NCBI GenBank assembly: GCA_028554795.2 | Contig: JAPYKE020000037.1 | Coordinates: forward strand, 4,522,501-4,586,500 | Length of the DNA stretch: 64,000 bases | Reading direction: 5' to 3' | Origin: Sinohyriopsis cumingii | Taxonomy: Eukaryota; Mollusca; Bivalvia; Unionida; Unionidae | Shown: positions 102 through 22,894 of the stretch, piece by piece | How positions within the stretch are numbered: position 1 is the first letter of the stretch | Layout of the letters: the number at the start of each line of letters is the position of its first letter | Notes under the pieces: model-generated | Told to the model about the DNA's origin: nothing | The model's input: only the letters and a program-made list of their open reading frames with translations | Databases searched by the model: none | Made by a program: the position numbers and the translations under genes

Positions 102-742
<641 letters not shown>

Positions 743-768
743 TGTGTACAATGAAGTTTCTATTTCAG

Positions 769-1896
769 AGAATTCTTCCTCTCTTGATGCAATAGATGAG
801 AATTTTATCGCCACGACTAAGGAATCTATATGTTCTGCTCCGTGTGAAGTAGGTGAAGCTTGGATAACTAGTCACAAGGACAAGTGCTGCTGGGAATGCA
901 ACCCCTGTGGAGAAGCAGAATATCTTTCAACTTTAAGTGTTTGTAAAAGGTGCAAAGATGGAACTCGCCCAAATTTAAACAGAACAGCTTGCGTCCCTAC
1001 AGAAGAGGTTTACATGAATCATGCAAACAAATATGCCGTTACATTTTGTATTCTTTCCACCGCTGCTATACTAGTTACCATTTTTGTCGGAGTATTATAT
1101 TACAGGAAACGGGAAACACCTATCATCAAAGCCAGTGGAACGGAAATGAGTTTTGTAATTCTTTCCGGAGTTATTTTCTCCTATGGATCAAGTTTCATCT
1201 TCGTTGCTTATCCATCCCCTGCTAGTTGTGGTGGAACTCGGTTAATCCTCGGTCTGTCTTACACCTTGGTCTATGCAGCCATTTTGGTCAAGACCAACCG
1301 GATATACAGGGTGTTCAATATCAAGGGAAACCAGCCGAAGAAACTGGCCATGATAAGTACTCAGTCACAGCTCCTTATAACGGCGGGCGTTGTTGTAGTC
1401 GAGGTTATCATTCTAGTAATGTGGATTGTTTTCAAACCACCGGATGTGACGAATATTTACCCAGACAATTACACAAACGTTCTTGTGTGCAAAGACTCGA
1501 CAGACTTCTCGTACCTCGGTGCACTGGCCTATCCCTTCATTCTTATGATAATCTGCTTGGTTTATGGATTTTTAACGCGAAAGGCCCCGGATGGGTTCAA
1601 TGAGGCGCGCCATATTGCTTTTGGTTCCTACGCATTTTGCGTGATGTGGCTCGCCTTTGTACCCATTTACTTTTCAGTTCAAAACAACACCTTACGTATT
1701 GCTTGCTTGTGTATAGCATCCCTTATTAATGCAACAGTAACATTGCTAACACTGTTTTTTCAAAAGGTGTACGCTGTACTCTGCCATCCGGAGAAAAATA
1801 CGCGGGAAAGTGTGATGACCCGAAAGAGAATGTTTAGCTATGATACATGGGATATAGACAAGCTGAGCGCACTTAGCAAAATTCGTGGAAATTCAG
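769..1896 (+). CDS. mGluR-like class C GPCR, exon with Cys-rich and 7TM domains
   Basis: This exon encodes the end of the cysteine-rich domain and all seven membrane segments of a class C G-protein-coupled receptor, a plasma-membrane receptor that in this family senses glutamate or related ligands. It opens after an acceptor (TTCTATTTCAG, ends 768) and closes at a donor (G|GTAATG, 1897). About 25 residues in, nine cysteines including a CC pair (KCCWEC) match the NCD3G/CRD pattern. Family signatures follow: TPIIKASG after the first membrane segment, KTNRIYRVF after the third, and [20 protein letters not shown] across the sixth. The tail starts at HPEKN. The bilobed ligand-binding domain is absent and must lie left of the window, so this is a partial gene. 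mGluR-like is secure; the subtype, and whether glutamate is the ligand, cannot be read from this half. Confidence 0.9.
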
Positions 1897-1931
1897 GTAA
1901 TGTGCACAAATATTTCTTATAACATACACAA

Positions 1932-6584: not shown

Positions 6585-6800
6585 TAAACTTTTGCGGAGC
6601 TAGCATTTGTTTCCTACAGATGGACATCTGAAGTAAGGCCAAGCTGTATACTCTATAACCCAAAGTAAGGCCAAGCTGTATACTATATAACCCAAATTAA
6701 GGCCAAGCTGTATACTCTACAACCCAAAGTAAGGCCAAGCTGTATACTCTACAACCCAAAGTAAGGTCAAGCTGTATACTCTATAACCCATATTATATCC
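6585..6800. repeat. 32-bp tandem array inside a dispersed repeat
   Basis: Five units of 32 bp (core AAGTAAGGCCAAGCTGTATA) run from 6631 to about 6790, with only a few substitutions between units. The preceding AGAGCTAGCA...ACATCTG and the following AACCCAT...ATCCATCA also occur around the single unit at 63522-63602. The locus is therefore a copy of a dispersed element in which one internal segment has been amplified. Confidence 0.8.
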
Positions 6801-7084
6801 ATCAGCAGCAAAAAAGGTGAACAGACCTTTTGCTGAAACGTCATTTTGAAAACTAAGAACTCATTCGAAAACAATAAAATATATAAGCATAATATCGCCA
6901 AACCTAAACCTCTAACTTTGCCCAGAGTTTTTTTTTTTCTAACTGGGTTATTTGTTTTTGTTACATTATCTTTGTCTTTAGTGTTTGTATAAATTTGTAT
7001 GCGCGTTTTCGTTTACCCACCTGACGTTTTAATGAGGTCGTTCACCCTTTCTTCTGCTATAATTAAATCACTATTATACCAATA
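6801..7084. other. Left flank of the viral relic
   Basis: AT-rich sequence with a small imperfect hairpin near 6806-6833 (AGCAAAA...TTTTGCT). No terminal inverted repeat of the viral relic could be recognised here, so its left border is undefined. Confidence 0.35.
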
Positions 7085-8173
7085 ATGGCACCGGCTTTGG
7101 AGTCTTATACTGCTAGATTAGCTAGAGAAAGATTAGAAGCAATCAATAAATTTACTCCCGTCCGTGAATCTGTCGGACGAAAACTACAAGAACGTCAAGA
7201 ATCTCAAGCTGAAATCGCAGAAGGTTCAGAGCAATAATTTAAGCCAATTGTCGAACAAGAAAGAAAATTGTTACAGTAAATGAGGCGACTCAAAAAGTTC
7301 TTGTAACATAACCTGTTAATATTGCTGGCCGTCTCAATCAGCTCAACCACCACCCCAGCAACCCCCTCAACCACAACCAGAAGTTCAACCACAACCTGTG
7401 TCAAGAGTTAGAATTAACATTACAGATAAAATCACGCCCGAAGGTATTGGCGCTATCAAAGACCCAAACAAACTACTTGATATTGTTGCGTTTGGTAATC
7501 ACGATAGAGATAAGTATGTGAAACCCGAATATGTTAAAACTTTTAAAAATTTTGATTGGATTAGAGATGTATAGTGCATCGCTACTAATATTCAACAAAA
7601 CAGATCTGAGGAAGATGTTAATAATTTTAACATTTTAAACTTGACAGTAGATGAGCGTATTAGACAATTAATTCTGGAAAGGAGACAAAAAGAACAAATG
7701 AAGTTGCAACTTGAAAAGGCAAACACAGAAAGGAAACAAAGAGAGAAGGAAATGAGGTCGAAACTTAAGGAGGTTGAACGAGAAAGGAAACAAAGAAAAG
7801 AAGATCTGGAATTTGAGAACTTAGACGAAGGAAGGAACTACGTTCTTCACCAGGTTAGAATGAAGCAAAATGGAAATTAGTCTCATGAAAATGGGAGAAG
7901 GAAGAATATATAAAAATAAGCGAGGAAGAAGGAGCAACTGGAAGTGGTTTTTATACTCAAGGAAGTGGTCTAGGAACTTGTCCTGACAGTGTTCTTGCCG
8001 ATGTTGACCGACTAGAAATTCTGATCGTAGGAAAATGCTTAGAAAATAATTCTCCAGAAATTATTAATGAAATATCTGATGTTTGCCGAAGATTATTTAC
8101 AGCAGGTGTTATGGGTCGTAACATTTATCATTCTCTTATTAATGAAATTGCCGATGATTATTATAGCGACTGA
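7085..8173 (+). pseudogene. Decayed coiled-coil protein gene of the viral relic
   Basis: Four coding pieces in series look like one gene of about 360 residues. An N-terminal piece starts MAPALESYTARLARERLEAI at 7085 and stops at 7235. A Pro/Gln-rich linker and a following segment run from about 7325 to a stop at 7572. A charged Lys/Glu/Arg coiled coil occupies 7620-7880 in that same frame. A C-terminal piece at about 7920-8173, in another frame, contains EEEGATGSGFYTQGSGLG and ends YYSD. At least one stop and two frame changes break it. No counterpart is seen beside the right copy, which ends near 20,880. A structural or scaffold role is possible from the coiled coil and its place upstream of the capsid genes, but I do not recognise the family. 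Confidence 0.55.
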
Positions 8174-8205
8174 AACAATTAATTAATAAGCATGCAATTT
8201 AAAAA

Positions 8206-8618
8206 ATGATTATACCCAATGCTCAACGTTGTCCTGTAATAGTTAGGGTAGTAAAATCACGATTACCAACTTATAAAGCAATTTAGGGAGATGGACTCGG
8301 TGATGTCATTGTGGGTTTATTGAGAAGGATGGCTCCAAAAGCAATACCGATTGCAAAAGAATAAGGGATGAAAGCTATTGACGCTATTCGTGATAAAGGT
8401 ATTAGTGCTGCTTGTGATCTTGCTAAGAAATTTTTCCATCGATTAACAAACGATTAGCTCAATTAGTAGGAAAAAAACGTCACCACCGCCGCCACCACCA
8501 CCAGTAAACTAACCAGCACTGAAGTTATGCCTGCAAAAATCATTAAAATAATAAATCAAGCTGCAAATAAAACAAACCAGCAGACTTGGCTGATATACCC
8601 TAGTCAGACAAAAATATA
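8206..8618 (+). pseudogene. Decayed small basic viral protein (left copy)
   Basis: This is the counterpart of the intact gene at 20454-20807. It shares the start (MII...A.R), then V.V..SRL, RRMAPKAIPIAK, and the distal STEVM.A..IKIINQ block. It contains internal stops (near 8284 and 8362) and a frame change after about 8455, where a His-rich or Pro-rich stretch is read depending on frame. Rich in Lys and Arg and placed directly before the capsid gene, it could be a virion core or DNA-condensing protein; that is inference. Confidence 0.6.
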
Positions 8619-8637
8619 ACGGCAAGCTTAATAGCAG

Positions 8638-10022
8638 GAGGTGTTCAAACGTGTATCCGACCCAGTATTTGACATGGATGCGCCATTTCGCATAGATAAA
8701 TCCATACGCGATTATCAGTATTATTCTTATGACGCACGACAACCAGATCAGCGTGTCCGAATTGAACTACAAGTTCAAGATACAAGCAGACATTTCTTAC
8801 CTGCTGAAGCATGTATTGCAGTAGAAGGGGCACTTTTGAAAGTTGATAATACAGAATATAATGCCAATGATAAAATTAGTTTCGTTAATAACGGCATCAT
8901 GGCGTTGGTTGACAGTGCTACATACATGATTGAGGGAAAAATATTGAAAATGTTCAAAACAACGTCGATGTTGCTACAACAATAATATATCTAGCAAGAT
9001 ATTCTGACGATTATACAAGATCAGCTGGCCCGTCAATGATGTTTGCTAAAGCCACTTTTGACTTTTCTGACAACAGACGTATATTATAGGACAACCAAGT
9101 AACGCTGCCAACACCCGTGATATTGATTCACAACATGTAATGATAAACGTTAATGCACGCTTCAACTTAAGTTTTACAACACGTCGATGAATGTTAAGAG
9201 GTAATAGAAGATTCTCATGCGTAATTGCACCGTCGCATTGTTTGATTTTGCAGAAATGTTCGAAAAGTTATTTTTGGAGCCAAGCATGCAGTTCTACTTG
9301 TAAGAAAGGCTACTCTCGATGATGCTATCTGGCGAGAAAGTGTTCGCGTTGAAGCTGGTAAAGTATTACTAACAAAACTTTCGTTGTGGATGCCGGTAAT
9401 GACTCCAACGATTGCCGAGGAACACAACTTACTCCCTTTTATGGATTCAGGTGGTAAATCAGTATTACCATGGTTAACAGCAGCTACAGTGTTCAAAATA
9501 ATGTTAATGGTTTATTTACATGGCATATAGCCTCTCAGTAAGGTAGTTCAGCTGCCAGGCATGTTTTCATTGTTTTTCAAAATACTGAACGAGTAAACGC
9601 GCAACTAAAAGAAAATCCATTGATAGTTGACAAAATTGGGGTTTGTGATGTTTCACTGAGGATAAATGGACATCATGGACCAGCTGAATATATATTAATG
9701 AATTTTGAATCAAATAATGTAGCGCGTACATATCATCGGTTAATGACATTTATTGGACGTTATCAAAATATAGATACTGGTTGACAAATATCCCAATTAG
9801 ATTTTACAAGTCTGTATCCGATTTATTACTTTTCGCTGTAACATCTTGATTTATTTAGACAATCTGAAGTCGATATTCACTTTTGAGCTCAAGTAAATAC
9901 AGACACTCGAGCTGTTCCTAATTACAGAGCAGTTGCTGTTATACTCAGCGACAAATCAACGTTACTTGAAGGTGTAGGTGGATGGTTGACAGTTATTGAC
10001 ACTCCAGTAGCAGATATGTAAT
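8638..10022 (+). pseudogene. Major-capsid-like protein gene, left copy, decayed
   Basis: The gene starts FKRVSDPVFDMDAP (the start codon position reads GTG at 8641, ATG in the right copy) and is open for 114 codons, then continues in other frames. Recognisable blocks are RYSDDYTRSA, a W-MPVMTPTIAEE segment near 9390-9420, YHRLMTFIG near 9735 and LYPIYYFSL near 9815. It ends with DTPVADM before a stop near 10020. About 460 codons is a usual size for a double-jelly-roll major capsid protein of Polinton-type viruses, and the gene order (minor capsid, protease next) fits. The right copy (19002-20379) matches throughout. The capsid assignment is from general family resemblance and context. Confidence 0.62.
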
Positions 10023-10044
10023 TAGATCAGTTACGATATTTATA

Positions 10045-10440
10045 ATGTCATATCTGCATGTTAGTGTCAGTCTGACTCCTGCTTAGATTTAAAAGCTTCG
10101 ATCAAGGTCAGCAAAAAACTTTGGAATAAAAATATCACCAAAAACAATGACCAGATCACACGTGGTGAAAATAAATTATCATTATTAGAATGTCAACTCA
10201 GACATTACAATGTCGCCAAACAATCAAAAACATGCGTTAAACTTAATCTTTCTCCTGGTGCAGCTAAAGACTCAATTGAAACAGGCTGTAAAATTCCACC
10301 TTTTGCGGCTTTACCGGGAATAATCGCCGCCGCAACTCCAACCATTGCAAAACAGTTGCACATAGCGTTGTAAGTGGTTTTGATGGACATGCTGATAAAA
10401 AGCTTGCTAAAACAGTACGAGGACGAAGAATAAAAAAGAC
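10045..10440 (+). pseudogene. Minor-capsid-like protein gene, left copy, decayed
   Basis: It begins ATG 10045 with MSYLHVSVSLTPA, matching MKISYSHVNVTLTSG at the start of the right-copy gene (about 18982). A distal block (KDSIETG...PPFAALPG) matches KDSIKTGGIFP in the right copy and is followed by an Ala/Ile-rich hydrophobic stretch. Stops and frame changes occur throughout. A short basic protein with repeated Lys-rich segments and a hydrophobic C-terminal half, between capsid and protease, resembles the minor virion proteins of adenovirus/Polinton-type viruses; the role is inferred. Confidence 0.5.
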
Positions 10441-10740
10441 AAAGAGGCCGGAGACTAAATTAAATTATAATTTAATCGATTTAGCTAATAAACTGAAAAT
10501 AAACAAATTCAGGGGTGTTTTATTTATGCGTGATTAATTACCAAAACAAACAAACAGTATTGAAACAGGAATTATTAATCTTGATAATAGTTCAGGGCCT
10601 GGTACTCATCGAGTTGCACACGGATTTGATCCGCGAGGTTATGATTATTATGATTCATATGGGCTTTCTCAGCCAATGTAATTTTTAAAATACGCTAAGA
10701 ATATTCCATTTTGGTATTCATCATTGTAACGTTGCCTTCT
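10441..10740 (+). pseudogene. Adenain-like cysteine protease, truncated
   Basis: The coding remnant reads NLIDLANKLKI..., then GIINLDNSS, GTHRVA (about 10599-10616) and YYDSYGLSQP (about 10645-10675). A GTHxVA His segment followed by a YxDSxG Asp segment is the arrangement of the adenain/C5 and Ulp1-like protease fold, which in such viruses matures capsid proteins. The terminal segment that should carry the catalytic Cys is missing: similarity stops near 10740. A stop codon breaks the N-terminal part. The right copy keeps only the first about 35 codons (18390-18500). Confidence 0.6.
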
Positions 10741-11225
10741 TAGAAATAGGGGTGGTTAATTGGTTTTAGCTGGCGTTATCCAGAGGATGACCTCCCTCGA
10801 TATTATAGCCCCGCGGGAGTGAAAGAAAAAGGGAATTTCAATAAAGTGAGAATACTGGGAAGAAATAAACAAAACGAACCCCCTTTTTACAAGAAAATAA
10901 CAAATTAATCAGATCAAATTAAACGGCAATTCCACTTCAAGTTAGATTATCTAAGTAGAATTTAATTGGTGTGTCCAATTAGGATTTATTACATCATCAT
11001 AGCGAGAGGTGAAAAGAGCGCAATGTCCACGATCGATTGCATCACCTTCATTCACTTTGATCGTATATCAACGTCTCCTAGTTTAGTTCTGCCCCTTCAT
11101 GGACTTCTTGGTCCTTTATTCTGACCTCATCCTTCTTTCTTTCTTTTCCCGTACTCCTGTCTTCGGACTGTCTCGTCTTTCTCTCCGAACTGTTCTTTAA
11201 ATTCAGCATCGATATCAAAATCGCG
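10741..11225. other. Junction between the two viral copies, nothing recognised
   Basis: 485 bases between the broken protease (+) and the end of the helicase (-). No similarity to either copy was noticed. It is partly C/T-rich (11130-11200). A run of about 11 G at 11236-11247 lies just inside the helicase side. It could be host DNA, a later insertion, or a remnant of the element's 3' part too worn to recognise. Confidence 0.4.
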
Positions 11226-12290
11226 TTATTGTTGTGGGGGGGGGGGTTGTGTGTCACATTGTTTATAGCTAATTAACTCTTTTCTTACTATATCATTGCT
11301 ATTGGCAGCAGTTTGATTATTATTTTCTGTAAAATCTATGATAACCTTCCGCAATTGGGATATTTTTCTAACTCGAGACACTGCCACGTGAACTAAATTC
11401 GACCATTCGATACGATCTTGGACGATCCAAACATTTGTATCAGAGATGGTCAATCCTTGAGATGAATGAATCGTCATTTCGTATCCTAGCGTTCATGGAG
11501 TTTTGTCCATTTACGCGCTCTCAACAACACTGAAATCATCGAAAACAATATCATTTAACACAAGATTGTGTTTCCTCTTTGACTCTGTCAATGGTCCTGT
11601 TATATCAACATCGATAATTTGTCGTCGCGTATCTGCTGGTCGATAACATAATGATACGGGTAGATTTGAAAACATTTCTTTATGTAGCAGAAATCATTGT
11701 TGCTGAAGTGTATCTCTTACTATTTTTCTACTTGCAACTATTAAGACATTTGGTCTCCATCACTATAAAAAAATTTAATAGGAGTTTCTGAAATTATATC
11801 AGGCATTATTTCACACTGAACTTTATTCGGTTGTAGTCTGATTAATTTCCTAAGCTCTCTTAATTCTGGATCAAGTGCTCTATAATCATCATTTATTTAT
11901 TCATAATAATCCACAAAGGTTTTCAACCATTCGTATTGAGACAATCCTAAAAAAGGTGGCGGTTGACCTTGATCGCCGCACATTATTACAGCAGTATATT
12001 TTGTTAATAACCAATCAAGAAATATTTTTAACTTTTCTACGGTGCATCTTTCATCCCAAACGATCAAACGATAATCCTTGGAATATATTTCTCGCCATTC
12101 GATCAAGAGTCCATGTATCTCCTCTCCATCGAAATAATTTGTGATAAGTACATAATTTAATATTTATTTTTCTCATTTCTCTTGCGAGTCTGTATGTATG
12201 GGTTAAAACGACCATATCAAAATTCCGAAATAATTCAGTCACACGAGTTGTTTTATCAGAACTCCCAGTCCGTTAGGACAAATAAATCTT
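11226..12290 (-). pseudogene. SF1 (Pif1/RecD-like) helicase part of polymerase-helicase, decayed
   Basis: Helicase motifs appear in the correct order on the minus strand. A Walker A remnant TGSSDKTTR lies at about 12247-12268 (one Gly of the usual GSGKT is changed to Asp). Walker B is IVWDERC at 12044-12070, and CGDQGQPPPF, a motif III-type block, is at 11949-11983. After a break, TIHSSQGLT (motif V type) lies at 11448-11475 and VAVSRVR (motif VI type) at 11367-11390. These are signatures of SF1B helicases, which unwind DNA with ATP. Several stops separate the pieces, and the stretch from about 11,500 to 11,890 has lost an obvious frame. It follows the polymerase in the same orientation with no visible gene border, so one polymerase-helicase polypeptide is likely. 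Confidence 0.8.
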
Positions 12291-14350
12291 ATTTATGGTC
12301 ACTGGATCATACACTGACGGTGCAGATGCCACTTTTGATATTTGATTTTTTTTATAATAAATATCTTTGATTTCAACGTCGACGGATTCAAAATAATTTA
12401 GTATATTTTCTTGTTTTATTCTCCATTCGCTCCATGATGCATAAGTGCCAATATTCAATTTTTGATACCAATCCTACCGGAATATTTTTATTGATATAAA
12501 AAGAATCTGTAGCGACTCCGACAGCAAACTTAGAAACTCTATTTATCATTGATAATATATTTTTCGAAACGTACGCGAGCATTGAAGATCTTAAATGAGT
12601 AAACTGCGGTGACTCGCCATCAATATAACCCACACTTGCATCTAATTTAGTTCCGACCGATAAGTTAACATTACTTCGACTTATAAATGTATTTTTCTCG
12701 TTGTATCAGCAATTATAAAATCTAATCAGCATCGTCTATAATCAATCGTGTACAGTGTCGTGTATGATCATATGATCCTCCTTGGGTGAATTTACTGTTT
12801 TGTTCTGCCGAGATCGTTTGTGATTTAATTCTCAAAATCAGTTATATCAGGATTTTCATCATCCGAATATTTATTTTGTTGTGGTAACCAAACTTCCTTC
12901 TACGGGCGATATGATGTAATTGCTTCATTCGCAATCGACGATAAAAGTATTTTTACATCGAGCATATACCGTAATAAAACCACATTTTTAATGAAGAATG
13001 TTTGCCAAAACAGACATAACAAATTGGATGAAGATTTTCGGCAAACTTAAATGACTCGATACAATCGAATCCAGTCAAGTCGAAGTCCAGTAATGGACCG
13101 TTTATCTATATCGATAATCTGGTCATTTCGGGTGTTGGATGACCAAATCTTTTAAAATATACAGAACACTCTCCCATTCCAAGTACACTTCCAGGATAGC
13201 ATGCAACCACATCAACCGAGAAAACATCTTTATGATCGTATTTACTATTCCATAATCCACCGTGTCCTTATTCGCCATAACTCGATATTATATCATTGAA
13301 AAAATCTAATCGTATTAGTTTCCACGAATTAGTAAAATGAACAGCAAAGGACGGAACTGTAAAAGAATTGCACAGTAATTGTTTAGCATCATCGGTATAT
13401 TTCAACGCAAGATTTTTCATTTCTTCGTGGAGAGATTATGTGCGATAAATAACGCCATTAGGTGGCACAAACTGATCATAGTCTCCTATATCTGAACTTT
13501 GAAATAACCATACATATACAAAATCGTTTTTACTTATTTTCTTAATAAAATCGAATATATCTCCTTGGTAAAATTTAACAGTTCGATTTCGTGGAAATAT
13601 TATTACTGCATTAGCCCACGCATACGCATTATGATCAATAATTTCAATCGAAGCTCCTTTTGATTTATTTTCGATTCTTACAAAATCTCTACGGTAATCG
13701 GTTTTGCTCTTATTGGAAATTTTAGTTTCTCTTCTAGCTCAGCGACGTCTCCTGTATCATTAACTGTTTCTCCCCACTCATTTATTATTTTACGTCTTTT
13801 ATCCGTTATACTGTTTCCACGAGTCGAAACGGTAAAATCTTCCGTTACACGATAGGCTACGCAATTTAGCGTTGAAAATTACATCAGTTTTAGATTATTA
13901 ACGCTGGGTTTATCATTTATCGGATATGATGCGTAGATAACTGCTGTTACAGGATACGCTCGTTCATAATACCGTTTGTCAATACCAGTCAACATTCCAG
14001 GTTTGGAATTTAGCTTAATATGGCGATTTTTGTATTATGAAGGACAGGGTCACGTTTGCCACTGACCATCCAATTATCGTCTACTTCCTTAAAAGAACTT
14101 TACCATGAAAATCTATTTTTAATTGTCGAAATAATTAATGATCTTTGCGATCGTTTGTCGTTCATCGTAACATCGATACATTTGCTGTTGCGTATGATTT
14201 TGAACGTTGACCACACGTGAGATGCGACATCTTTGCTAAATTGATTCTTGGAGTCAAGAATTTTATTAATCAGCTTTTATTCGTCGGATCAGCCAGAGCT
14301 TTAATCGGTAAGACAAGGATATTTTGTCAAGACTAAATTTATCTTTAGAA
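12291..14350 (-). pseudogene. Family B DNA polymerase of the viral relic, decayed
   Basis: On the minus strand, VDVVACYPGSVLGMG at 13171-13216 fits polymerase motif A (DxxSxYP) and GVATDSFYI at 12493-12520 fits motif C (DTDS-type). Motif B should lie between them but falls in a frame-shifted stretch and is not clear. Upstream pieces at 13,300-14,000 (for instance TRGNSITDKRRKIINEWGE) form the N-terminal region. Family B polymerases in Polinton-like viruses and linear plasmids are protein-primed replicases (established); protein priming here is inferred from context. There are many stops and frameshifts. The start was not found and may have been disturbed by the LINE inserted near 14,430. Confidence 0.75.
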
Positions 14351-14429
14351 GGCTTAATCGTAGATAATCTCTCAAATTCTCTCATATTATAATTAAGACA
14401 AATATTTAAATTGAAATATATATATGTGC

Positions 14430-14757
14430 ACATGGGTGAAGTCGGATAGCTATGTTGAACTAGAGTCCGACATTGAAGCGTAGTACAGAGAACAAATTTT
14501 GTGTTTGATTCTGGAAGGAATGGATATCCAGTATAGGGTACAGAGCAGCGTGGAGGTGTGCTCTGATCGTGGTACTCTAAGTATGATCCGAGCAGCTGTG
14601 TTTTGAAGTATTTGAAGTTCCTGGAGCAGATACTGGGATGACCCAGACATAACTGGGTTACAAAATTCCAGTCGTGAAAGTACTAATGAACACACACGTG
14701 TTTTAGTGGCATCAACTGAAAGATATTTGCGAATTGAGCTGATGCATCTCAGCTAAA
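14430..14757 (-). mobile_element. LINE reverse-transcriptase C-terminal fragment
   Basis: The minus strand encodes a coherent stretch typical of the end of a CR1/Jockey/RTE-type LINE reverse transcriptase: LRCISSIRKYLSVDATKTR, then LVLSRLEFCNPVMSGS, LQELQILQNTAARIILRVPR, then LYWISIPSRIKHKICSLYY. The frame is open from 14757 down to about 14450. 5'-truncated copies keeping only the 3' part are usual for LINEs. It sits between viral genes and has no place in such a virus, so it inserted later. Confidence 0.85.
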
Positions 14758-15808
14758 GGTATGCAACCTTGCATATGTTCATGATATTTATTAGTGAAAT
14801 GCTCTTGGGAAAACGAAAGATAAGTGAAATATTTATTTAGTAATCTAGAGGTTGTCTTTGCATTATATTACACAATTGTATTAAATCGCTTTGGTTCAGG
14901 AATACAATTTAAACATATATTTCTTAATATATAATAAAAAGCATTTTAAAAATACTAGTGCTATTACTTCTGCAATTAAAAAAATAAAATATGACAGTTG
15001 AAAAATTCAACTTGATCCTGAAAAAAATTATTTCGAACTTTGAATCATTACAAATTCGGAAATTTGAAGGTGGATGTACACTATCAGCATAATCTAAATT
15101 AATTAAAAACCATCCAGCAGACTATGATACAATATGTATAAATAATGAAAGATACAAAAGTGGAGAAATTCGTCCCGCTTTCGATCGCGATTGAAAACAT
15201 TAGATTAAAATTATCTGACGAAGATTATATCAGATCGTGAAAGCGTCAACGCTGTTACTTATGAAAGTGATTGTAGTAACAACGTCACTAGTGATGAAAA
15301 TGAAAGTTATGACTAGTGATTGTGAAAAGTAAAAGTTAATTTTATTATGGTTACAATACCTTTTTTTTTTGATTTTCAGAGATTTCAGTGAAATTTATTC
15401 AAAATTTACGTTTTTCTACCGATTTTAAACGATTTGTCTGTTTAAATAAATCAGTCAAATTGCAGACTTATAAATTGTGAAAACCTCAGCGGTTCTCAAA
15501 ATGATTTATCGAAAAATCGTTAACTTTTCATAAAACACAGCACAAAATGATGTTTTTGAAGCTAAATTATGACTGAATTTAGTTGTTTTTTAAGCAGAAG
15601 ATGGAAAATTTATCGATATATTGAAAAATCGTTTAGAAAATCGCTATGGTATTCACCCAATCAAAGTATAAAATCTGACGGATTTTGATTATTTATCTCA
15701 CAGCTGAATGAGAATCAGTAAAAACAAAATAGTATGTTATATATTTTGTAATTTTTTAAACATTTTTTAGAATATAAGAAGCAGTTTAATCAAATCAGAT
15801 TGTTTTGT
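14758..15808. other. Low-information stretch in the relic, weak + strand frame
   Basis: AT-rich. On the plus strand from about 14991 a broken frame reads MTVEKFNLILKKIISNFESL, then after a stop LIKNHPADYDTICINNERY, with more shifts to about 15,300. I do not recognise it. It would be the only plus-strand gene within the right copy. From 15,340 to 15,800 nothing is visible. Confidence 0.3.
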
Positions 15809-16096
15809 TCATAAGTAGACAATATTTTTAAGCTGATCAAATATAATACAGGGTTGTGTATAATTAAAAATCTGATCTCTATCACACGCAATCATACTAT
15901 GTTCTAGCCGAAGTTGATTCAATTTTTCCTGTGTCAATAAAACGTCTTCGTTGCCGTTTTCACCAATAACTATATCAACATTAAATTGTTCAGTATTGAC
16001 TGGAGACTGTGACATTTTTGTTCTGATGGCGTTTTCACGTACCTCCTCCGTGTCGTTTACGAAAGCTATCACATGATGGTACATTATATAACACAT
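15809..16096 (-). CDS. Unrecognised 95-residue open frame in the relic
   Basis: Open on the minus strand from ATG 16096 to a stop at 15809. It encodes an acidic, non-membrane polypeptide (for example IVIGENGNEDVLLTQEKLNQ). It lies after the penton-like gene in the same orientation and may be a separate small gene or a displaced end of it. No family was recognised. Short open frames in AT-rich decayed DNA can arise by chance; its charged composition argues mildly for former coding. Confidence 0.4.
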   Translation of the reverse strand: MCYIMYHHVIAFVNDTEEVRENAIRTKMSQSPVNTEQFNVDIVIGENGNEDVLLTQEKLNQLRLEHSMIACDRDQIFNYTQPCIIFDQLKNIVYL

Positions 16097-16129
16097 TCCT
16101 TGATTAAATAATTAATTGTAAATCAATGT

Positions 16130-17700
16130 ACAAAAAATGTATCGTTTAGATCTTACGTATAAATTTATATTTAAAAAATCTCCACGAAAGTCAATTAAGT
16201 GTTCCTCTGGTTAGTAAGTTTGACATTTATTCTTGATAATAACGAATTATGACAACGTAGATAAACCGGATTGATTGGTTTTTGTACGATTAAATATCCA
16301 GGAGGTACTTGCGGAATAAATGTTTACAGAATATATCCTTGCTGAACCTGATTTGATTTTTGAAGATCTATTTGGTAACTGCCATCAATTACATCGCATA
16401 CAAGACTGACTGCAATCGTTGAAGTTATATTAACGATTTCTCGTGGAATATGACGGCTTTACCAGTATTGATTATTATAAAGTTTACGAATACCCAGAGA
16501 AAGGGATATTTTTCCATGATTCAACGATTTTAGGAACGTTTTCGCTGATAATAGTTTAGTTCATCCTTATTAAATTTGGAATTGCAAATGTAAAATAACC
16601 TTGTCCTTCAAATTCTTTTTCTGTTATTTTATAATGATTGATAAATGTTTCTCTAGGGCGTGTTAAAGAAATAGCGTGGTTAAATACTTCCTTAATGAAA
16701 GTGTAACTAACATGATCATAATGTGATTCAAACTGATTTAAATGTTGTATTGTTTGAATGAAGTGTTGTTTTATATCATCATTGTAATGTTGGGATAACG
16801 ACAAAAACAGGTTTTGTATTTTGTCGATTGGTTATTTGACTTCAGAATTAATGGGGTCGGAATACATTTAATAAACGTCCAAGTATCTTATTTTGCCACT
16901 AAAACTATACATATTATATACATCATTACTTACATTCCACGGAAAAATATTTCGATAGTTTGGTGTTGTTATAAAAATTCCTCATTTGTGATAAAATCAT
17001 CTCGTTTTGGGTCAGGTGGTCCATTATAAACAGTTGCTATTTTAGGCAAACCTAAAACATATCTAACTGATGACTGACATATATCTACAACGTCATCTGT
17101 CGAATTTATTTCAATCGCAGCCGATAATGTTGGTTCTGAACTTTTACAGCTATTTGTGCTTCTCTTTCGATTATAGATTTTATTCTGCGCTGCAATTCAT
17201 CGTTGATTTGTTCAATCTGATAACTAACTGTAGGAATAGAAACAATTAACTAGTCCGGGGTTCCATCTGTTTTATTTTTATTTACAAAATTACGAATTAT
17301 TCGCCTGCAATCCACCAAATAATTTTGATCTGTGATACACTCGTAATTATGCAAGCGCTATTTCTTTCGCTGGAATTGCAGTTGGAAAGTTAATATTAAA
17401 TTTAGGATTACTTGAGCCTACCAATATCATTGTTGTTTTTGACGTAGTTGTGTTCGTTACGATTTGTTGAAGTAGCTCGCCTGACGACCTCAGTGGAGTT
17501 GATATTATTATTTAAATCCTGATTTTCTAAACCAGTCACAGTCATTGCTTCTTTGTAAAAAAACATTGATCATATCCGTGAACTCAAAATTTAATATTTT
17601 TCCATCACTAAGACTTGTTGATAATAACGAGGATAATTTGGAGTATGCTAACGTCGCTGTGTGTAATTTTATTATATAATCATGCAATTTTGCATTTGTG
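16130..17700 (-). pseudogene. Penton/minor-capsid-like gene of the relic, decayed
   Basis: Minus-strand pieces in several frames: a segment with QINDELQRRIKSIIEREAQI near 17,150-17,230; VVDICQSSVRYVLGLPKI and NGPPDPKRDDFIT near 16,985-17,100; an 82-codon open piece at 16556-16804 (HYDHVSYTFIKEVFNHAISL); and a C-terminal piece with VPPGYLIVQKPINPVY near 16262-16310, then LIDFRGDFLNINLYVR to about 16,150. The last block, a VPPGY turn followed by beta-rich sequence ending DFRG...NLYVR, resembles the C-terminal part of penton-like proteins in related elements as I remember them. Role: vertex protein of the capsid, by inference. Stops and frameshifts are frequent. Confidence 0.5.
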
Positions 17701-17705
17701 CACGT

Positions 17706-17999
17706 TCATATTTTTTTGTGTGCAATGATACTAAGAATGCCGGCAATCGTTGTTGCAGCTAAAACACAAATTATCACAACTGCTGGTGCCATTACAAGTG
17801 ATGGTATTATTGCTGATAACAATACGCCGGTTCCAGTAATAACAGCAGAAGCTGAATAAACAATTAAATCAACAATAACTACACGTCTGCGATATTTCTT
17901 TACTTTTACTATATACCCGTCAACGATATTTTTTAATTTTGTTTGCCATTCACGTGCTTTATTGTATCTAAAATGTTGAACATTGATCGGAATACTCAT
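17706..17999 (-). CDS. Small membrane protein of the relic, intact frame
   Basis: A 97-codon open frame on the minus strand (ATG 17999, stop 17706). The first about 45 residues are polar and basic (FRYNKAREWQTKLK, VKVKKYRRRVV). Two or three hydrophobic segments follow from about residue 45 to 92, rich in Val, Ile, Ala and Gly, ending in a short basic tail (IIAHKKI). It is probably an integral membrane protein with a cytosolic basic head. It lies between the protease stub and the penton-like gene in the same orientation. It is one of few uninterrupted frames in the relic; I do not know its function. Confidence 0.6.
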   Translation of the reverse strand: MSIPINVQHFRYNKAREWQTKLKNIVDGYIVKVKKYRRRVVIVDLIVYSASAVITGTGVLLSAIIPSLVMAPAVVIICVLAATTIAGILSIIAHKKI

Positions 18000-18005
18000 T
18001 GTATT

Positions 18006-18201
18006 TTAATTAAGTGGGAACTTAGCTACTAATTCAAGAAACCAATAATAAATCAAGCCGAGTTTTTTTCTTCGGGTTTCACAGTAAATGTTACCTCGTC
18101 GTTTTGATCTTACATCACTAACATAGATCCAGGAGATCCAGTTAGTGGATAACGCCGTGAAATCGTGGTAGATATTATAACTGTTACAACACCAAGTACT
18201 G
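18006..18201 (-). pseudogene. Unrecognised coding remnant upstream of the membrane protein
   Basis: A minus-strand frame open over this stretch begins inside the neighbouring SINE, so its start is not original. Another frame holds a short plausible piece (DEVTFTVKPEEKNS). It probably belonged to a viral gene between the protease and the membrane protein; the family is not recognised. Confidence 0.3.
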
Positions 18202-18220
18202 AGAACCTGTATATACCGGT

Positions 18221-18302
18221 TGTGGTTGTGGTTGTTGTGGGGTTTAACGCCATTTTTCAGCACGATAGGCTATACATGGCGGCCAGTATTAATGGTGGAG
18301 GA
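18221..18302 (-). mobile_element. SINE family A, 5'-truncated, with 19-bp target duplication
   Basis: 82 bases matching the 3' end of SINE A (inverse of CCACCATTAATACTGGCCGC...AATGGCGTTAAACCC) with a CAACCACA-type tail, on the minus strand. It is flanked by a perfect 19-bp direct repeat, AGAACCTGTATATACCGGT, at 18202-18220 and 18303-18321. Target duplications of this length are made by LINE-driven retroposition. The target lies in the viral relic, so the relic was already in the genome. Confidence 0.9.
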
Positions 18303-18389
18303 AGAACCTGTATATACCGGTAACCGCAGCGCGATGTTTAATGGATTTATTGATTGGTGACCATACTGTTTGGTCAGATATTAAGTATA

Positions 18390-18500
18390 TAATAGGTCAA
18401 AATTGTTTGGTTGTTTTGGTAACTGATCACGCATAACAACACATGATATTTTTTATATTTAATTTTTTTAGCAGCATCGAGTAAATCAAAATTTGACATA
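18390..18500 (-). pseudogene. Protease N-terminal stub, right copy
   Basis: The minus strand encodes NFDLLDAAKKIKYKKY... and a following frame VMRDQLPKQ, matching NLIDLANKLKI...MRD-LPKQ of the left-copy protease. The rest of the protease, including the His and Asp segments seen in the left copy, is missing. Confidence 0.5.
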
Positions 18501-18589
18501 GGCAAAATTAGCGAAATGTTCCTGGAAGTCTCAGGCCTTTTCCGTACCAATAAATGGTTCCAGGTAATCGTAGACCCCTTCCCTTTTAA

Positions 18590-18982
18590 TATCCTTTTCC
18601 TGTTATTTTATCAACAAGCATGCTACCAACCTTTCCGACAGTATCACTTAAAACACCAACTGCAGCAGTTTTTGCAATGGCTGGGGCTGTAGGAGGTATT
18701 GACGCAGGTAAAGCTGCAAAAGTGGAAATATACCTCCTGTTTTAATGGAGTCTTTAATGGAACTCAGAGAAAAACGAAGTCGAACTCCGGTTTTTGATTC
18801 TAAAGCCTTATTAAAATGTTTGAGTTGAGTCTTGGTTAATGATAATTTGTTTGGACCACCACTAGAAGTTTGATCTTTTTTTAGTTATATTTTTGTTCCG
18901 CATTTACTCGCAAGTTTTGATTGTAATTTTTCACCCGACCGGATGTTAGAGTGACATTAACGTGACTATACGATATTTTCAT
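18590..18982 (-). pseudogene. Minor-capsid-like protein gene, right copy, decayed
   Basis: It starts MKISYSHVNVTLTSG on the minus strand near 18982 and breaks after about 33 codons. It is resumed by LSLTKTQLKHFNKALESKTG and KDSIKTGGIFP, then a hydrophobic Ala/Leu/Pro-rich stretch and a Gly/Lys-rich end near 18,600. Block order matches the left-copy gene. Repeated short Lys-rich motifs are typical of the minor virion proteins in this kind of virus, as far as I recall. Confidence 0.5.
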
Positions 18983-19001
18983 AATATGATAAACGATTTA
19001 A

Positions 19002-20379
19002 TTACATGTTTTCTACTGGTGCGTCAACAACTCGCATTCGTCCACCAACACCTTCAAGTAACATTGCTTTGTCTGAAAAAATAACTGCAACTGCTCTGTA
19101 ATTTAGCACCACCAAGGGGGTTTACACGAGCTCTAAAGTGAATATCAACAATAGATTGTCTAGATAAATCAAGATGTTCCAATGAAAAATAATAGATCGG
19201 ATACAGAATTGTAAAATCTAGTTCTGATATTTGTAGACCACTATCTATATTTTCATCACATCCCACGAAAGTCATTAACCGATGATATGCACGTGCTACA
19301 TGATATCTGTCAAAATTTAATAATATATCTTCCGATGGTTCTTTTTGTCCATTTATTCGTAAGGAGACTTCACTAACTGCAAGTGTGTCAAATATCATAT
19401 GATTACGTTCTTGTCAATTTAGTCAATTGTCAATTTAGTCGATTAGCAAATTGTAAAGCGATAAATATATGCCTCAGCGCAAAAACTCCTTGTTGTGATG
19501 CTAATTGCCATGTAAATAACACAGCAATATTACTTTGAACGCTATCTGTGGTCATTGTCAACCATGATAGCAATGATTTACCACCTGAAGCCATAAAAGA
19601 AAATAATGTTTGTTCTTCAGCAATTGATGGAGTCATTACTGGCATCCACCGTGAAAATTTTATTAATCTTACCATACAATTGTGAGCAGCAGCAGGAGGC
19701 CAGATTGCATCATTGTCATTCGCTTTTCTTACAAGTACAACTGTATGTTTAGCTCCAAAAATAACTTGTCTAACATTTCTACAAAATCCAATGATATGAG
19801 ATAGTTGAATTGTACATGAAAACGCTTCTTCGCCGTTTAACGTTGTTCTGCGTGCAGCAAAACCTCAGTTGCATTGATTGATATAATGGCTGGTGTAGCT
19901 GCATCTCCTGCAGCAGTTCTTACATTTCCCTCAACTGCATTGACAGGTTCAGGATGATCAGATGTATCTTTTGCAAACATCATTGATGCAACGGCTGATC
20001 TTGTATAATCATCTAACTATCTTGCAAGACCAATTATTGTTGTAGCAACATCAACGTCTTTTTGAATTGTTTGAACATTTCTTCCATCAATAATATATTT
20101 GGCGCTGTCAAACAATGTCATAATGCCATTATTAACACATCCAACTATATCACCAATTGCAACTCCTGTACCATGATCTTGAAAATTTCTACTTTCTACT
20201 TCAATAAATGCTTCGGCGGGTAGGAAATATCTACTTGTATCTTGAAATTGTAATTCGATTCTTCCACGCCAGTCTGGTTGTCTTGCGTCGTAAGAGTAAA
20301 ATTGATAATCACGTATAGATTCACCTTTGAGAACTGGTGTGTCCATATCGAACGCTGGATCGGATATACGTTTAAACAT
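19002..20379 (-). pseudogene. Major-capsid-like protein gene, right copy, decayed
   Basis: It starts MFKRISDPAFDMDTP at 20379 (an in-frame ATG also exists at 20415) and stays open for about 120 codons. It continues through at least two frame changes with SRWMPVMTPSIAEEQ near 19,640, LRINGQKEPSEDILLNF near 19,330, YHRLMTFVGC near 19,270 and LYPIYYFSLEHLDLSRQ near 19,180. It ends VVDAPVENM before a stop at 19002-19004. The length of about 460 codons suits a double-jelly-roll capsid protein, and the relation to the left copy is clear along its whole length. No catalytic motif is expected. The capsid assignment rests on size, context and general resemblance. Confidence 0.65.
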
Positions 20380-20453
20380 TTTATTATAATTGTTATCGTC
20401 TAACACGAAGACCACTTCCTGCTATTAAACTTGCCGTTATATTTTTGTCTTTT

Positions 20454-20807
20454 TCATTTTCTAACAGGGGTACACCAGCCAACTTGATTTATAATTTTAA
20501 TGACATTTGCAGTCATAACTTCAGTGCTGGGCAATTTTACTAGTTGCGGTTTTCGTCTAATTACCCGTGCTAGTCTATCCTTGATTGTCGACAACGCTTT
20601 ACCGGCAAGATTATCAATAGCGCCGATGCCTTTATCACGAACAAAATAAATAGCTTTCGTTCCTAGTTGTTTTGCAATCGGTATTGCTTTTGGGGCTATT
20701 CTTCTAAATAGACCGATTCCATCTCCGAAAGTTGTTTTATAGGCAAGTAATCTCGAATTTACTAATCTAACCATGACTGTTCTACGTTCAGCATGGTGTA
20801 TAATCAT
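20454..20807 (-). CDS. Small basic viral protein, intact frame (right copy)
   Basis: An open frame of 117 codons from ATG 20807 to a stop at 20454. The alignment of its first residues with the left copy (MII..A.R) supports this start over the ATG at 20774. It is strongly basic (VIRRKPQLVK, RRIAPKAIPIAK) with a Gly/Ala-rich middle, and ends IKIINQVGWCTPVRK. It lies 74 bases before the capsid-like gene in the same direction. A DNA-binding core or minor virion protein is possible; I do not recognise a named family. It is intact, unlike its left-copy counterpart. Confidence 0.6.
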   Translation of the reverse strand: MIIHHAERRTVMVRLVNSRLLAYKTTFGDGIGLFRRIAPKAIPIAKQLGTKAIYFVRDKGIGAIDNLAGKALSTIKDRLARVIRRKPQLVKLPSTEVMTANVIKIINQVGWCTPVRK

Positions 20808-21007
20808 TTATTTATTATTTATTTATCTAATCACTGCGAAAATCATCAGAAATTTCAACAATGAGATAATGCATAATTAATCAAAAATGTGTACAAAGCC
20901 TTTTGTTTCAAGAATTGGATTTTGTAACTTGCATCGCGTGAAGCACAATAACCAGAAGTTATTAGCGCTTCAAACCATAAAGAAATTAGTTGTGTATATT
21001 ATTTTTG
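20808..21007. other. Right flank of the viral relic
   Basis: AT-rich sequence between the basic protein gene and a minisatellite. No terminal inverted repeat matching the left flank was seen, so the border is not defined. Confidence 0.35.
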
Positions 21008-21430
21008 TCTATACAACAGTCAAGATATTTAGTCCTGATAATGTCTATACAACCATCAAGATATTTAGTCTTGATAATGTCTATACGAAAGTCAAGATAT
21101 TTAGTCCTGATAATGTCTATACGAAAGTCAAGAGATTTAGTCCTGATAATGTCTATACAACAGTCAAGATATTTAGACCTGATAATGTCTATACAACCAT
21201 CAAGATATTTAGACCTGATAATGTCCATACGAAAGTCAAGATATTTAGACCTGATAATGTCTATACAACCGTCTAGATATTTAGTCCTAATAATGTCTTT
21301 ACAACAGTCAATCTTTTTAGTCACGATAATGTCTGTACAACTGCCAAGATATTTATATCTGATAATGTCTATACAACAGTCAATACATTTATCTCTGATA
21401 ATATCTATACAACAGTCAAGATATTTTTAA
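21008..21430. repeat. 36-bp minisatellite, about 12 units
   Basis: Units of 36 bp with the core GTCTATACAACAGTCAAGAT and ATTTAGTCCTGATAAT. Variation is mainly ACAACC/ACGAAAG and TAGTCC/TAGACC. 36 is a multiple of three and the unit lacks stops in several frames, so frames of 112-146 residues open on both strands; these are artefacts. Confidence 0.95.
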
Positions 21431-21536
21431 TTTTTATTTTACGTCGTTGATCTTTGTTCAGTCTAGCAAATAAACTAGGTCCCGATTTCTCTAAGCATTT
21501 AGTCCTCATGAAATCAATTAAAGGGTCACACCATAT

Positions 21537-21838
21537 GCGTGTGTGTGATGTAGATTTTTAACGTAGCTTTAATAATTTGTCAGTCATATCGCTACGATGT
21601 CTGCAGCGGGGCAGTTTATAGTGATGTCTAGCAGTGGGGCATCATGCCGCAGACTTGTAGCATGATGTCCCCACCCAGTCACATTACCCTGACACCAGGC
21701 CGACCAGTCCTAACACTAACCTCTTAATGCCAAGCACCCAACGAGGCAGCTGTTAGTACCATTTTTATAATTCTTTGGTATGACTCTGCCTGGGTTCGAA
21801 CCCGCGACCTCTCTAACCTCTAGGCCACCGGAGCGGTC
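21537..21838 (-). mobile_element. SINE family B copy 1
   Basis: Read on the minus strand it starts with a tRNA-like head (inverse of GGCCACCGGAGCGGTC; B-box GGTTCGAACCC). The body shares CAGGCCGACCAGTCCTAACA with the other copies (written here in plus orientation). It ends with the 3' consensus TAAAGCTACGTTAAAAAT and a short CA tail. About 20 bases of the anticodon-arm region are deleted in this copy. Confidence 0.88.
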
Positions 21839-22894
21839 TTAGAAAATGAGTAATAAATTGTATGTATGCTATATATAAAAACAGAGTGGTACATATATAG
21901 CTGCGTTATAAATGCAAATGCATGTAAAACAAACACAAAATGTCACATTATTAGATTGGTATTTGTTTTATTGTCACGTGTTTTTCTACAAGCAATCGAA
22001 TATTCCAAGAACATGCACGAGTGATAAGACAAATTTGCATAAGCACGATCTGTTGTCTGATCTAAATATGAAAAACAGATCTTTACTCTCTTTTATGCAT
22101 GATTCATTGTACCAAGAACGGCTCCTTGAGACGAAATTATGTTACGTGTGTCATCATTTTCGGTTACAATAAAAACAATCTAGTTGGATAGTTAAGAATG
22201 ATATGATTCCAGAATAATAACCTACTAATTCCAGTTTACTTTGATGTTGTCAGTGAGCCATTTGAGTTATGGTCACAGAACCAAACATCACGTTATAATG
22301 TATATTCAACGAGACTTGTTCTGTGATGCATTCGCTTAGTTATGCCTACATTTAAAGATGAAGACGGGTTCGATAACCCGACGATATGCGGTTATTAGGC
22401 GTAATATACGTGATTTCAATACCTCATTTTAATGTGGCGTATAGTAATGCAAATAGAACCAAAAATGAACGATGTAACTCGAAATAAAAATATAATCTAC
22501 TCCGACGTTCATGCTTTGCATGCAGAAACAGAGTACACGTTTCAAACGATGATAAGGAGTATTCGGCACAGTATATATTATCCTTGTAGGGCATGGCTTG
22601 TATGAAGTGAACGAACAATAGTACATATTTGTGTCAAGAAAGTAATCAAAATGGCTTTACTGTAGCGCCATAGTTCCGACACGAATATTACCTTCGTCTG
22701 AATTTCGAAAAAGACTGGATAATATCGAATTCTTCAATACAGTATTTCATATTAGTCTATGGCATTACTTGTAAGCTAACTGAAGTGAAGGAACGACGGC
22801 ACAGATTTGTGTCACACATGCAGTCTGAAGAATGTTACTGTAGCACCATATGTATCACAAGAATGTGACCTTGGAAGAGGTAATTTGTAACTTG
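21839..22894. other. 3' flank of the PH-domain gene, nothing else seen
   Basis: AT-rich. Probably includes the 3' untranslated region of the minus-strand PH-domain gene, whose stop is at 22895. Open frames at 21912-22172 and 22424-22626 show no family features. Confidence 0.4.

What the first reader, a model, noticed from the sequence alone, without database searches (positions are those of the whole stretch)
7085..20807. Two diverged copies of an endogenous Polinton/adintovirus-like DNA virus lying tail to tail
Seen: four genes (basic protein, capsid-like, minor-capsid-like, protease) occur in the same order on the plus strand at 8206-10740 and on the minus strand at 20807-18390; between them lie membrane-protein, penton-like and polymerase-helicase remnants on the minus strand. 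Known: this gene set is that of Polinton-like and adintovirus-like elements. Inferred: two separate endogenisations of related viruses, or one virus that integrated beside or into another, rather than a recent inverted duplication, because the copies differ at many residues.
Basis: partly seen in the sequence, partly recalled or inferred. Interest (0 to 1): 0.88.

Follow-up and report, generated by a model that had tools for sequence, protein, structure and literature searches.

The report
Two fossils of a Polinton-like virus
Two decayed, separately inserted DNA-virus remnants lie tail to tail here; they belong to a large family of virus-like elements in the same animal genome, some of which keep most of their genes open, including one for an unusual helicase-fused replication protein.

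Summary
Window 8125-10376 (+) and 20876-18645 (-) align at 68.4% DNA identity over 2331 bp, genes in the same order. They are not an inverted duplication: in a capsid-region tree the right copy falls among decayed copies (87% to its closest) and the left on the other side of a branch (support 95/97) with young copies; 0% of 200 bootstrap trees unite them. A dispersed ~480-bp repeat lies between them. The host genome (2.9 Gb, unnamed) holds a large family: an exact 31-mer of the young copies occurs 796 times. Six young copies, picked for open capsid frames, span 16.5-18.7 kb, with terminal inverted repeats, 5-bp duplications (5 of 6), capsid, adenain-type protease, packaging ATPase, RVE integrase, phospholipase A2, and a large protein ending in Pif1-type helicase and HNH nuclease. 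dN/dS is 0.08-0.37 for ATPase, replicase, capsid and integrase. So: a Polinton-type endogenous virus whose replicase resembles Tlr1-like polymerase-helicase fusions described from protist viruses, not canonical Polinton PolB. The polymerase part rests on motifs alone. New variant of a known kind.

The parts
6804..7084 (+). possible remnant of the left copy's terminal inverted repeat (begins AGCAGC, as the TIRs of young copies do)
   Evidence: 28 bp at 85.7%, E=0.008, to one of six TIRs, just beyond a tandem repeat; similarity to L021 reaches 7036. Weak; the own-genome DNA search of this stretch did not complete.
7085..8170 (+). left copy: coiled-coil gene remnant (N- and C-terminal parts)
   Evidence: tblastx to the ~400-aa gene of a young copy: 7100-7267 (50%) and 7964-8158 (55%)
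8203..8616 (+). left copy: basic, probably core, protein remnant
   Evidence: tblastx 55-77% to the 146-aa gene
8635..10021 (+). left copy: major capsid protein (DJR) remnant
   Evidence: PF21738 E=0.012, below cut-off, on piece 9246-9530
10044..10365 (+). left copy: small basic/hydrophobic protein (minor-capsid or core-like) remnant
   Evidence: tblastx 42-55% to the 157-aa gene
10463..10693 (+). left copy: adenain-type protease, cut off at about 10693; reads THR where a young copy reads THW
   Evidence: family assignment from homologues
10722..11201 (+). dispersed ~480-bp repeat at the junction of the two copies
   Evidence: 39 other near-full-length places (81-88%) and one 60-bp place (93%), 40 candidates scored of 2535; matches start at query 11-32 and end at 486-502; not found in the fetched loci or the rest of the window
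11198..14424 (-). right copy: polymerase-helicase fusion remnant; motif A DVVACYPG (13109-13267), motif C VATDS (12391-12705), Walker A lost (12054-12272); ends before the HNH domain
14425..14787 (-). dispersed fragment beside/inside the right copy's replicase (probably non-LTR RT end)
   Evidence: 90% to L049:3315-3676
16148..17511 (-). right copy: 486-aa 'penton-like' gene remnant (identity not supported)
   Evidence: tblastx up to 75% to young copies, with weaker stretches; no convincing family or PDB hit
17542..18005 (-). right copy: 176-aa membrane-type protein remnant
   Evidence: tblastx about 52-61%
18063..18396 (-). right copy: rest of the 341-aa gene, holding a 90-bp dispersed repeat (18219-18308)
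   Evidence: weak tblastx 25-58%; repeat
18397..18589 (-). right copy: protease remnant
   Evidence: in 15 of 29 loci the match also ends at 18397
18589..18983 (-). right copy: small basic/hydrophobic protein remnant
18992..20421 (-). right copy: major capsid protein (DJR) remnant
   Evidence: PF21738 E=2e-9, 37.6 bits against cut-off 27 on piece 19430-19864
20388..20807 (-). right copy: basic, probably core, protein remnant
   Evidence: tblastx 47-72%
20808..20870 (-). right copy: last codons of the coiled-coil gene; truncated at about 20870

Best explanation
Two old, inactivated insertions from different lineages of one family of capsid-encoding, Polinton-type DNA elements. Shown: the two copies, their truncation, their separate ancestry, and the family's genes, TIRs and target-site duplications in young copies of the same genome. 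Inferred mechanism: linear genomes with TIRs are copied by the large palm-helicase-HNH protein, packaged by the A32-type ATPase into DJR capsids matured by the adenain-type protease, and inserted by the RVE integrase with 5-bp duplications. Two such inserts came to lie in convergent orientation, lost their facing ends where a dispersed 480-bp repeat now sits, and decayed.
For: Copies and order. Family hits in genome copies: MCP PF21738 1.1e-19, rve 3e-7 (31.1 bits, cut-off 32.6), Pox_A32 8.6e-13, PLA2 9.7e-13, AAA_19 helicase 4.2e-11, Peptidase_C5 0.0014 (below cut-off); Dda-like helicase 2.4e-18 and endonuclease VII/HNH 7.6e-9 in the same protein; IS481-type transposase 3.1e-13 for the integrase, below NCBIfam's cut-off. 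TIRs of 252-557 bp, 92.6-99.6% identical, in 6 of 6 copies; 5-bp duplications in 5 of 6. Separate ancestry: right-L002 87.3% against right-left 71.6% in the capsid region; 0% of 200 bootstrap trees join the two. Right-L002 differences fall nearly evenly on codon positions (.132/.114/.143, as decay after insertion predicts), left-right less evenly (.302/.218/.334, partly diverged under selection). Selection among six young copies: dN/dS basic 0.17, MCP 0.36, ATPase 0.08, replicase 0.18, integrase 0.37, protease 0.45, PLA2 0.34, penton-like 0.51.
Against: No virion or expression evidence. The palm part has no DNA_pol_B_2 hit (which drops most matches above about E=0.1), and hhalign against canonical pPolB of the same genome gave nothing (Prob 0.2). 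Not all young copies are intact: the C4 replicase is split between two frames and the integrase frame is 246 instead of 330 aa in two of six. Coiled-coil gene dN/dS 0.87. The six were picked for long open capsid frames. The tree's 29 other loci were fetched with the right copy as query, so the left copy's nearest kin are missing from it. No relative was found in IMG/VR. How the copies came tail to tail is not resolved.
Confidence: 0.85

Rival explanations
1. One insertion, then an inverted segmental duplication, with the two copies diverging in place.
For: Convergent orientation and close spacing; both copies share the segment from the coiled-coil end to the protease.
Against: The right copy is 80-87% identical to 17 of the 19 other members of its clade but 71.6% to the left; 0% of bootstraps unite the two; neither is among the other's 150 scored matches; left-right differences are uneven over codon positions.
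Confidence: 0.04
2. Nested insertion: one element inserted into the other in opposite orientation, and later deletions removed the ends.
For: On C13 the 3' half of a minus-strand copy runs to its TIR end at 7441162, about 7.2 kb from the capsid match of a plus-strand copy, less than a full copy would need; in L049 an older copy and a younger inverted copy lie about 220 bp apart.
Against: No continuation of the left copy is seen beyond the right copy (tblastx to 22000); no TIR was found at the junction; both copies end at a dispersed repeat. The C13 plus-strand copy was not traced up to the junction.
Confidence: 0.3
3. Ectopic recombination between copies of the dispersed 480-bp repeat brought two unrelated insertions together and cut both.
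For: Left copy ends at 10693 and right copy at about 11198, near the two edges (about 10722 and 11201) of a repeat with many copies.
Against: The repeat may simply have inserted there later; no partner site was identified.
Confidence: 0.35
4. The elements are transposons that merely keep decaying capsid genes.
For: Hundreds of chromosomal copies; no particles known; coiled-coil gene dN/dS 0.87.
Against: Capsid, core-type and packaging genes show dN/dS 0.08-0.36 among six young copies; 99 of the 150 scored matches to the right capsid piece lie in open frames of at least 450 aa (numbers typed).
Confidence: 0.12

Closest known systems
Polinton/Maverick elements (polintoviruses)
   Same: DJR MCP, adenain-type protease, packaging ATPase, RVE integrase, TIRs, 16.5-18.7 kb, high copy number in an animal genome
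   Different: No recognisable DNA_pol_B_2 polymerase; replicase fused to an SF1 helicase and HNH; 5-bp duplications, where 6 bp is given as typical of rve-INT, though 5-6 bp for PLVs (PMC12220804, passages)
Tlr1-like pPolB-S1H proteins of polinton-like viruses, the Tlr1 element and transpovirons (PMC11071308, passages)
   Same: Large protein with a C-terminal-side SF1 helicase plus homing-endonuclease domain (HNH here; GIY-YIG or HNH in the paper), palm-like motifs with the first Asp of motif C missing, RVE integrase as in Tlr1
   Different: Host is an animal; the passages seen place these proteins in PLVs, the Tetrahymena Tlr1 element, transpovirons and some Cryptomonas PLVs. Palm homology not proved; TP and vOTU domains not tested. 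The founding paper (Krupovic 2016) could not be read
OmPLV of Oxyrrhis marina (PMC12721341, passages)
   Same: Endogenous, helicase-polymerase fusion, TIRs of 232-858 bp
   Different: There the helicase is N-terminal to a full pPolB with exonuclease, a tyrosine recombinase is present, RVE-INT was not detected and no target duplications were found
Adintoviruses (PMC11071296, passages)
   Same: Animal-associated, RVE integrase, adenovirus-like virion genes
   Different: [quoted passage not shown] PolB and chromodomain were not detected here, hexon similarity was not tested

Membership tests
Polinton/Maverick | RVE-type integrase | tested here: met
   rve E=3e-7, 31.1 bits (cut-off 32.6, just under); IS481-type 3.1e-13; D139-x34-E174 by eye. 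In a young copy; absent from the window
Polinton/Maverick | terminal inverted repeats | tested here: met
   6 of 6 young copies; in the window only a weak trace at 6804
Polinton/Maverick | 6-bp target-site duplication | tested here: not met
   5 bp in 5 of 6, none seen in 1 of 6 (flanks)
Polinton/Maverick | protein-primed PolB with exonuclease (DNA_pol_B_2) | tested here: not met
   no hit in the two replicase stretches scanned; hhalign to the canonical PolB family of the same genome Prob 0.2
[quoted passage not shown]
   PF21738 1.1e-19 in a young copy, 2e-9 in the window's right copy; no PDB sequence hit
Polinton/Maverick | packaging ATPase | tested here: met
   Pox_A32 8.6e-13, over its cut-off
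Polinton/Maverick | adenain-type protease | tested here: met
   Peptidase_C5 0.0014 (18.8 bits, cut-off 21.3); PDB S273R 0.0021, adenain 0.12: modest support
Polinton/Maverick | penton (single jelly-roll) | tested here: inconclusive
   486-aa candidate, no convincing family or PDB match
Tlr1-like pPolB-S1H | SF1 helicase at the C-terminal side of a large protein | tested here: met
   AAA_19 4.2e-11, Dda-like 2.4e-18, Pif1 PDB chains 0.012
Tlr1-like pPolB-S1H | C-terminal homing endonuclease (GIY-YIG or HNH) | tested here: met
   endonuclease VII/HNH at residues 679-755 of the 770-aa stretch, 7.6e-9
Tlr1-like pPolB-S1H | pPolB palm upstream of the helicase | tested here: inconclusive
   motif A DMVACYPG, motif C VATDS, B-like KDLGRKIIGKF by eye; no profile support
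Tlr1-like pPolB-S1H | terminal-protein and vOTU domains | not tested
Adintovirus | PolB with N-terminal OTU-like domain; integrase with chromodomain | tested here: not met
   no DNA_pol_B_2 hit; only rve found in the integrase at E<=0.1

The most novel reading that the evidence does not exclude
An animal genome carries a recently or still spreading Polinton-type virus lineage whose replicase is a Tlr1-type polymerase-helicase-HNH fusion, alongside elements with canonical PolB. This architecture, in the passages seen here described from protist viruses and transpovirons, would then also serve an animal virus, with hundreds of copies, many with open capsid genes, and several older waves, two of which are fossilised in this window.
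Probability: 0.5. Interest if true: 0.78.

Novelty: new variant of a known kind. Interest (0 to 1): 0.6.

Why it matters
[quoted passage not shown] Finding that replicase type beside canonical PolB in one animal genome would show that the step is not confined to protist viruses and transpovirons, and gives a natural side-by-side comparison. Fossils of different ages and well-preserved copies in one genome also make it testable whether capsid genes are kept because the elements still travel as viruses.

Tried and rejected
Recent inverted duplication: rejected. Artefact by near-identity: rejected, the copies differ by about 30%. Structure of the capsid piece: AlphaFold2 on window pieces alone gave pLDDT 31, discarded. 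Penton identity: nothing convincing. Relatives in IMG/VR: none with the right capsid piece, the replicase stretch, a young capsid, an ATPase alignment or a helicase alignment; two more alignments had no usable stretch. Palm homology by hhalign against the canonical PolB family: nothing. A general tendency to lie tail to tail: among the 150 places only two neighbouring pairs lie within 60 kb, both convergent; too few to conclude. Own-genome search of the possible left TIR (6640-7090): not completed.

Notes on sampling. Only 150 matches are listed per genome search, so copy numbers are lower bounds. The six young copies were chosen by me for long open capsid frames and plus-strand position. The 29 comparison loci of the tree came from the right-copy query. 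One search lists 100 of 796 places. The TIR-borne ORF was found in 5 of 6 copies. could not score penton-like and PLA2 because of my frame error; one search repeats these two. The HNH gene (dS 0.30) and other non-core genes are too.
Full report
OBSERVATION. Blastn of window 7000-13000 against 13000-22000 gives 68.4% identity over 2331 bp in opposite orientation, 8125-10376 (+) against 20876-18645 (-), and 103 bp more at 75.7%. Capsid pieces of the two copies are 54-57% identical in protein.

THE FAMILY IN THE HOST GENOME. The window is G000:C37:4522501-4586500 of a 2.9-Gb assembly. The right copy's capsid piece has 150 scored matches out of 21006 candidates; 99 of the 150 lie in open frames of at least 450 aa. 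The left piece has 150 scored out of 17724 candidates, the best others 78% over 94 and 80% over 81 residues. An exact 31-mer from the PLA2 gene region occurs 422 + 374 = 796 times, its reversed control 0 times. If each were full length that would be about 13 Mb (arithmetic, not measured).

ANATOMY OF YOUNG COPIES. Six copies, picked for open capsid frames, share one order: TIR; coiled-coil protein; basic protein; capsid; small basic protein; protease; 341-aa protein; membrane protein; 486-aa protein; minus-strand ORFs, one an HNH_3 homing endonuclease (E=4.6e-14); the large replicase; integrase (-); PLA2 plus DUF5679 protein (-); ATPase (+); in 5 of 6 a cysteine-rich ORF at the TIR. Not every gene is open in every copy: the C4 replicase is split between two frames, and the integrase frame is 246 rather than 330 aa in two copies. 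Pfam: DJR-like 1.1e-19, Peptidase_C5 0.0014 (below cut-off), AAA_19 4.2e-11, rve 3e-7 (31.1 bits, cut-off 32.6), PLA2 9.7e-13, DUF5679 9.9e-8, Pox_A32 8.6e-13. The protease matches African swine fever virus S273R at E=0.0021 in the PDB (the virus name is recalled, the molecule name is the tool's). The 341-aa protein has weak phage head-decoration and tail-fibre hits (best 3.1e-5), so it may be a fibre.

TERMINI. TIRs are 252-557 bp and 92.6-99.6% identical. The inverted repeats begin AGCAGCAGAG, and 5-bp direct repeats flank 5 of 6 (CAAAT, TAAAC, GATGT, CCATG, ACATT; none seen for the sixth). Five copies span 16.5-17.4 kb and one 18.7 kb; in that one about 1.9 kb separates the basic-protein and capsid genes, which adjoin in the other five.

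REPLICASE. The large protein holds a Pif1/Dda-type helicase and a C-terminal endonuclease VII/HNH domain. Upstream lie short motifs like those of a PolB palm: DMVACYPG, KDLGRKIIGKF, VATDS (motif reading from recall). The missing first Asp of motif C matches what PMC11071308 says of Tlr1-like proteins (passage). Profile methods do not confirm the palm. The same genome has elements with canonical DNA_pol_B_2 polymerases, open frames up to 1363 aa (75 candidates scored of 21499). Of these 75 places only one lies within 40 kb of one of the 150 capsid places (C1, 19 kb apart). Both lists are capped, so separateness of the two families is likely, not proved.

THE WINDOW COPIES. By tblastx to young copies the left one covers coiled-coil to mid-protease (7100-10693), the right one basic protein to helicase (20807-11252), with most of the 341-aa gene missing. 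No integrase, PLA2 or ATPase part was found anywhere in the window with one young copy as query. The right helicase has lost its Walker A (GSSDKTT). Seven of 29 related loci stop matching at 20869-20871 while continuing themselves, so the right copy is cut there. Between the copies sits a dispersed repeat, about 10722-11201, with 39 other near-full-length scored places and one short one.

TWO LINEAGES. In a capsid-region tree of 31 rows one branch (support 95/97) separates 20 rows, with the right copy, from 11 rows, with the left copy. The other 19 rows on the right copy's side all have open frames under 450 aa; the left copy's side holds the six young copies of the set, L021, L017 and L023/L024. 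0% of 200 bootstrap trees unite left and right. Right and L002 differ almost equally at the three codon positions (.132/.114/.143), as decay after insertion predicts; left and right differ less evenly (.302/.218/.334), so part of their divergence arose in replicating ancestors.

IS IT VIRUS-LIKE? Across 15 pairs of six young copies dN/dS is 0.17 basic, 0.36 capsid (C-terminal part), 0.29 small basic protein, 0.45 protease, 0.47 for the 341-aa and 0.53 for the membrane protein, 0.18 replicase, 0.37 integrase, 0.08 ATPase, 0.35 for both minus-strand ORFs, but 0.87 for the coiled-coil gene; 0.51 penton-like, 0.34 PLA2. dS is about 0.06-0.17 for most genes, above the TIR-arm differences of four of the six copies (0.4-2%). 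If the arms are alike when inserted (assumption), much divergence precedes insertion, which fits several replicating lineages better than one burst.

TAIL TO TAIL. Two other convergent cases were seen: on C1 (L049) an older copy and a younger inverted one about 220 bp apart, and on C13 a minus-strand copy whose TIR end lies about 7.2 kb from a plus-strand capsid match. Among the 150 listed places only two neighbouring pairs lie within 60 kb, so no general preference is shown.

LITERATURE. Full-text searches listed no paper that, by title or abstract start, describes a Tlr1-like replicase in an animal element. Only passages of some were read, and Krupovic et al. 2016, Barth et al. 2024 and the PNAS version of the DJR paper are not held, so prior description is not excluded. 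PMC12220804 notes endogenous PLVs in stony corals and PLV-like elements with insect poxviruses (passage), so PLVs in animals are not new as such. PMC10294476 lists Mavericks across molluscs (passage).

HOST. A class C GPCR exon lies in the window, so an animal is likely. Genome size and simple repeats suggest a mollusc, perhaps a cephalopod; that is impression, not test.

Noticed in passing
G000, PF03175 matches, e.g. C7:122372215-122373930 (L052): Elements with canonical DNA_pol_B_2 polymerases (exonuclease and palm, open frames up to 1363 aa) in the same genome; 75 candidates scored of 21499; one of the 75 lies 19 kb from a listed capsid copy.
   Followed up: partly
window 591-1922 (+): Exon of a class C GPCR (7tm_3 E=1.8e-63, NCD3G just under its cut-off), metabotropic-glutamate-receptor-like host gene.
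   Followed up: no
window 20990-21426: 36-bp minisatellite just beyond the broken 5' end of the right copy; a 32-bp tandem repeat (6631-6795) lies just left of the left copy.
   Followed up: no
window 36354-36653, also 21554-21811: Dispersed repeat, about 83% alike, overlapping the predicted tRNA-Ser(cga) at 36580-36653; looks like a tRNA-derived SINE.
   Followed up: no
L034 rel -2717..-2343 and L036:4525-4899: In the C5 copy the 557-bp TIRs hold a cysteine-rich 125-aa ORF at both ends; the other five have shorter TIRs.
   Followed up: partly
L049:4552-6964: An inverted copy (83% to L036) lies about 220 bp beyond the last match of an older copy: another tail-to-tail pair.
   Followed up: partly
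window 18219-18308: 90-bp dispersed repeat inside the 341-aa gene remnant, with more copies in the window at 29244-29333, 34750-34841, 42988-43072 and 47252-47321.
   Followed up: no
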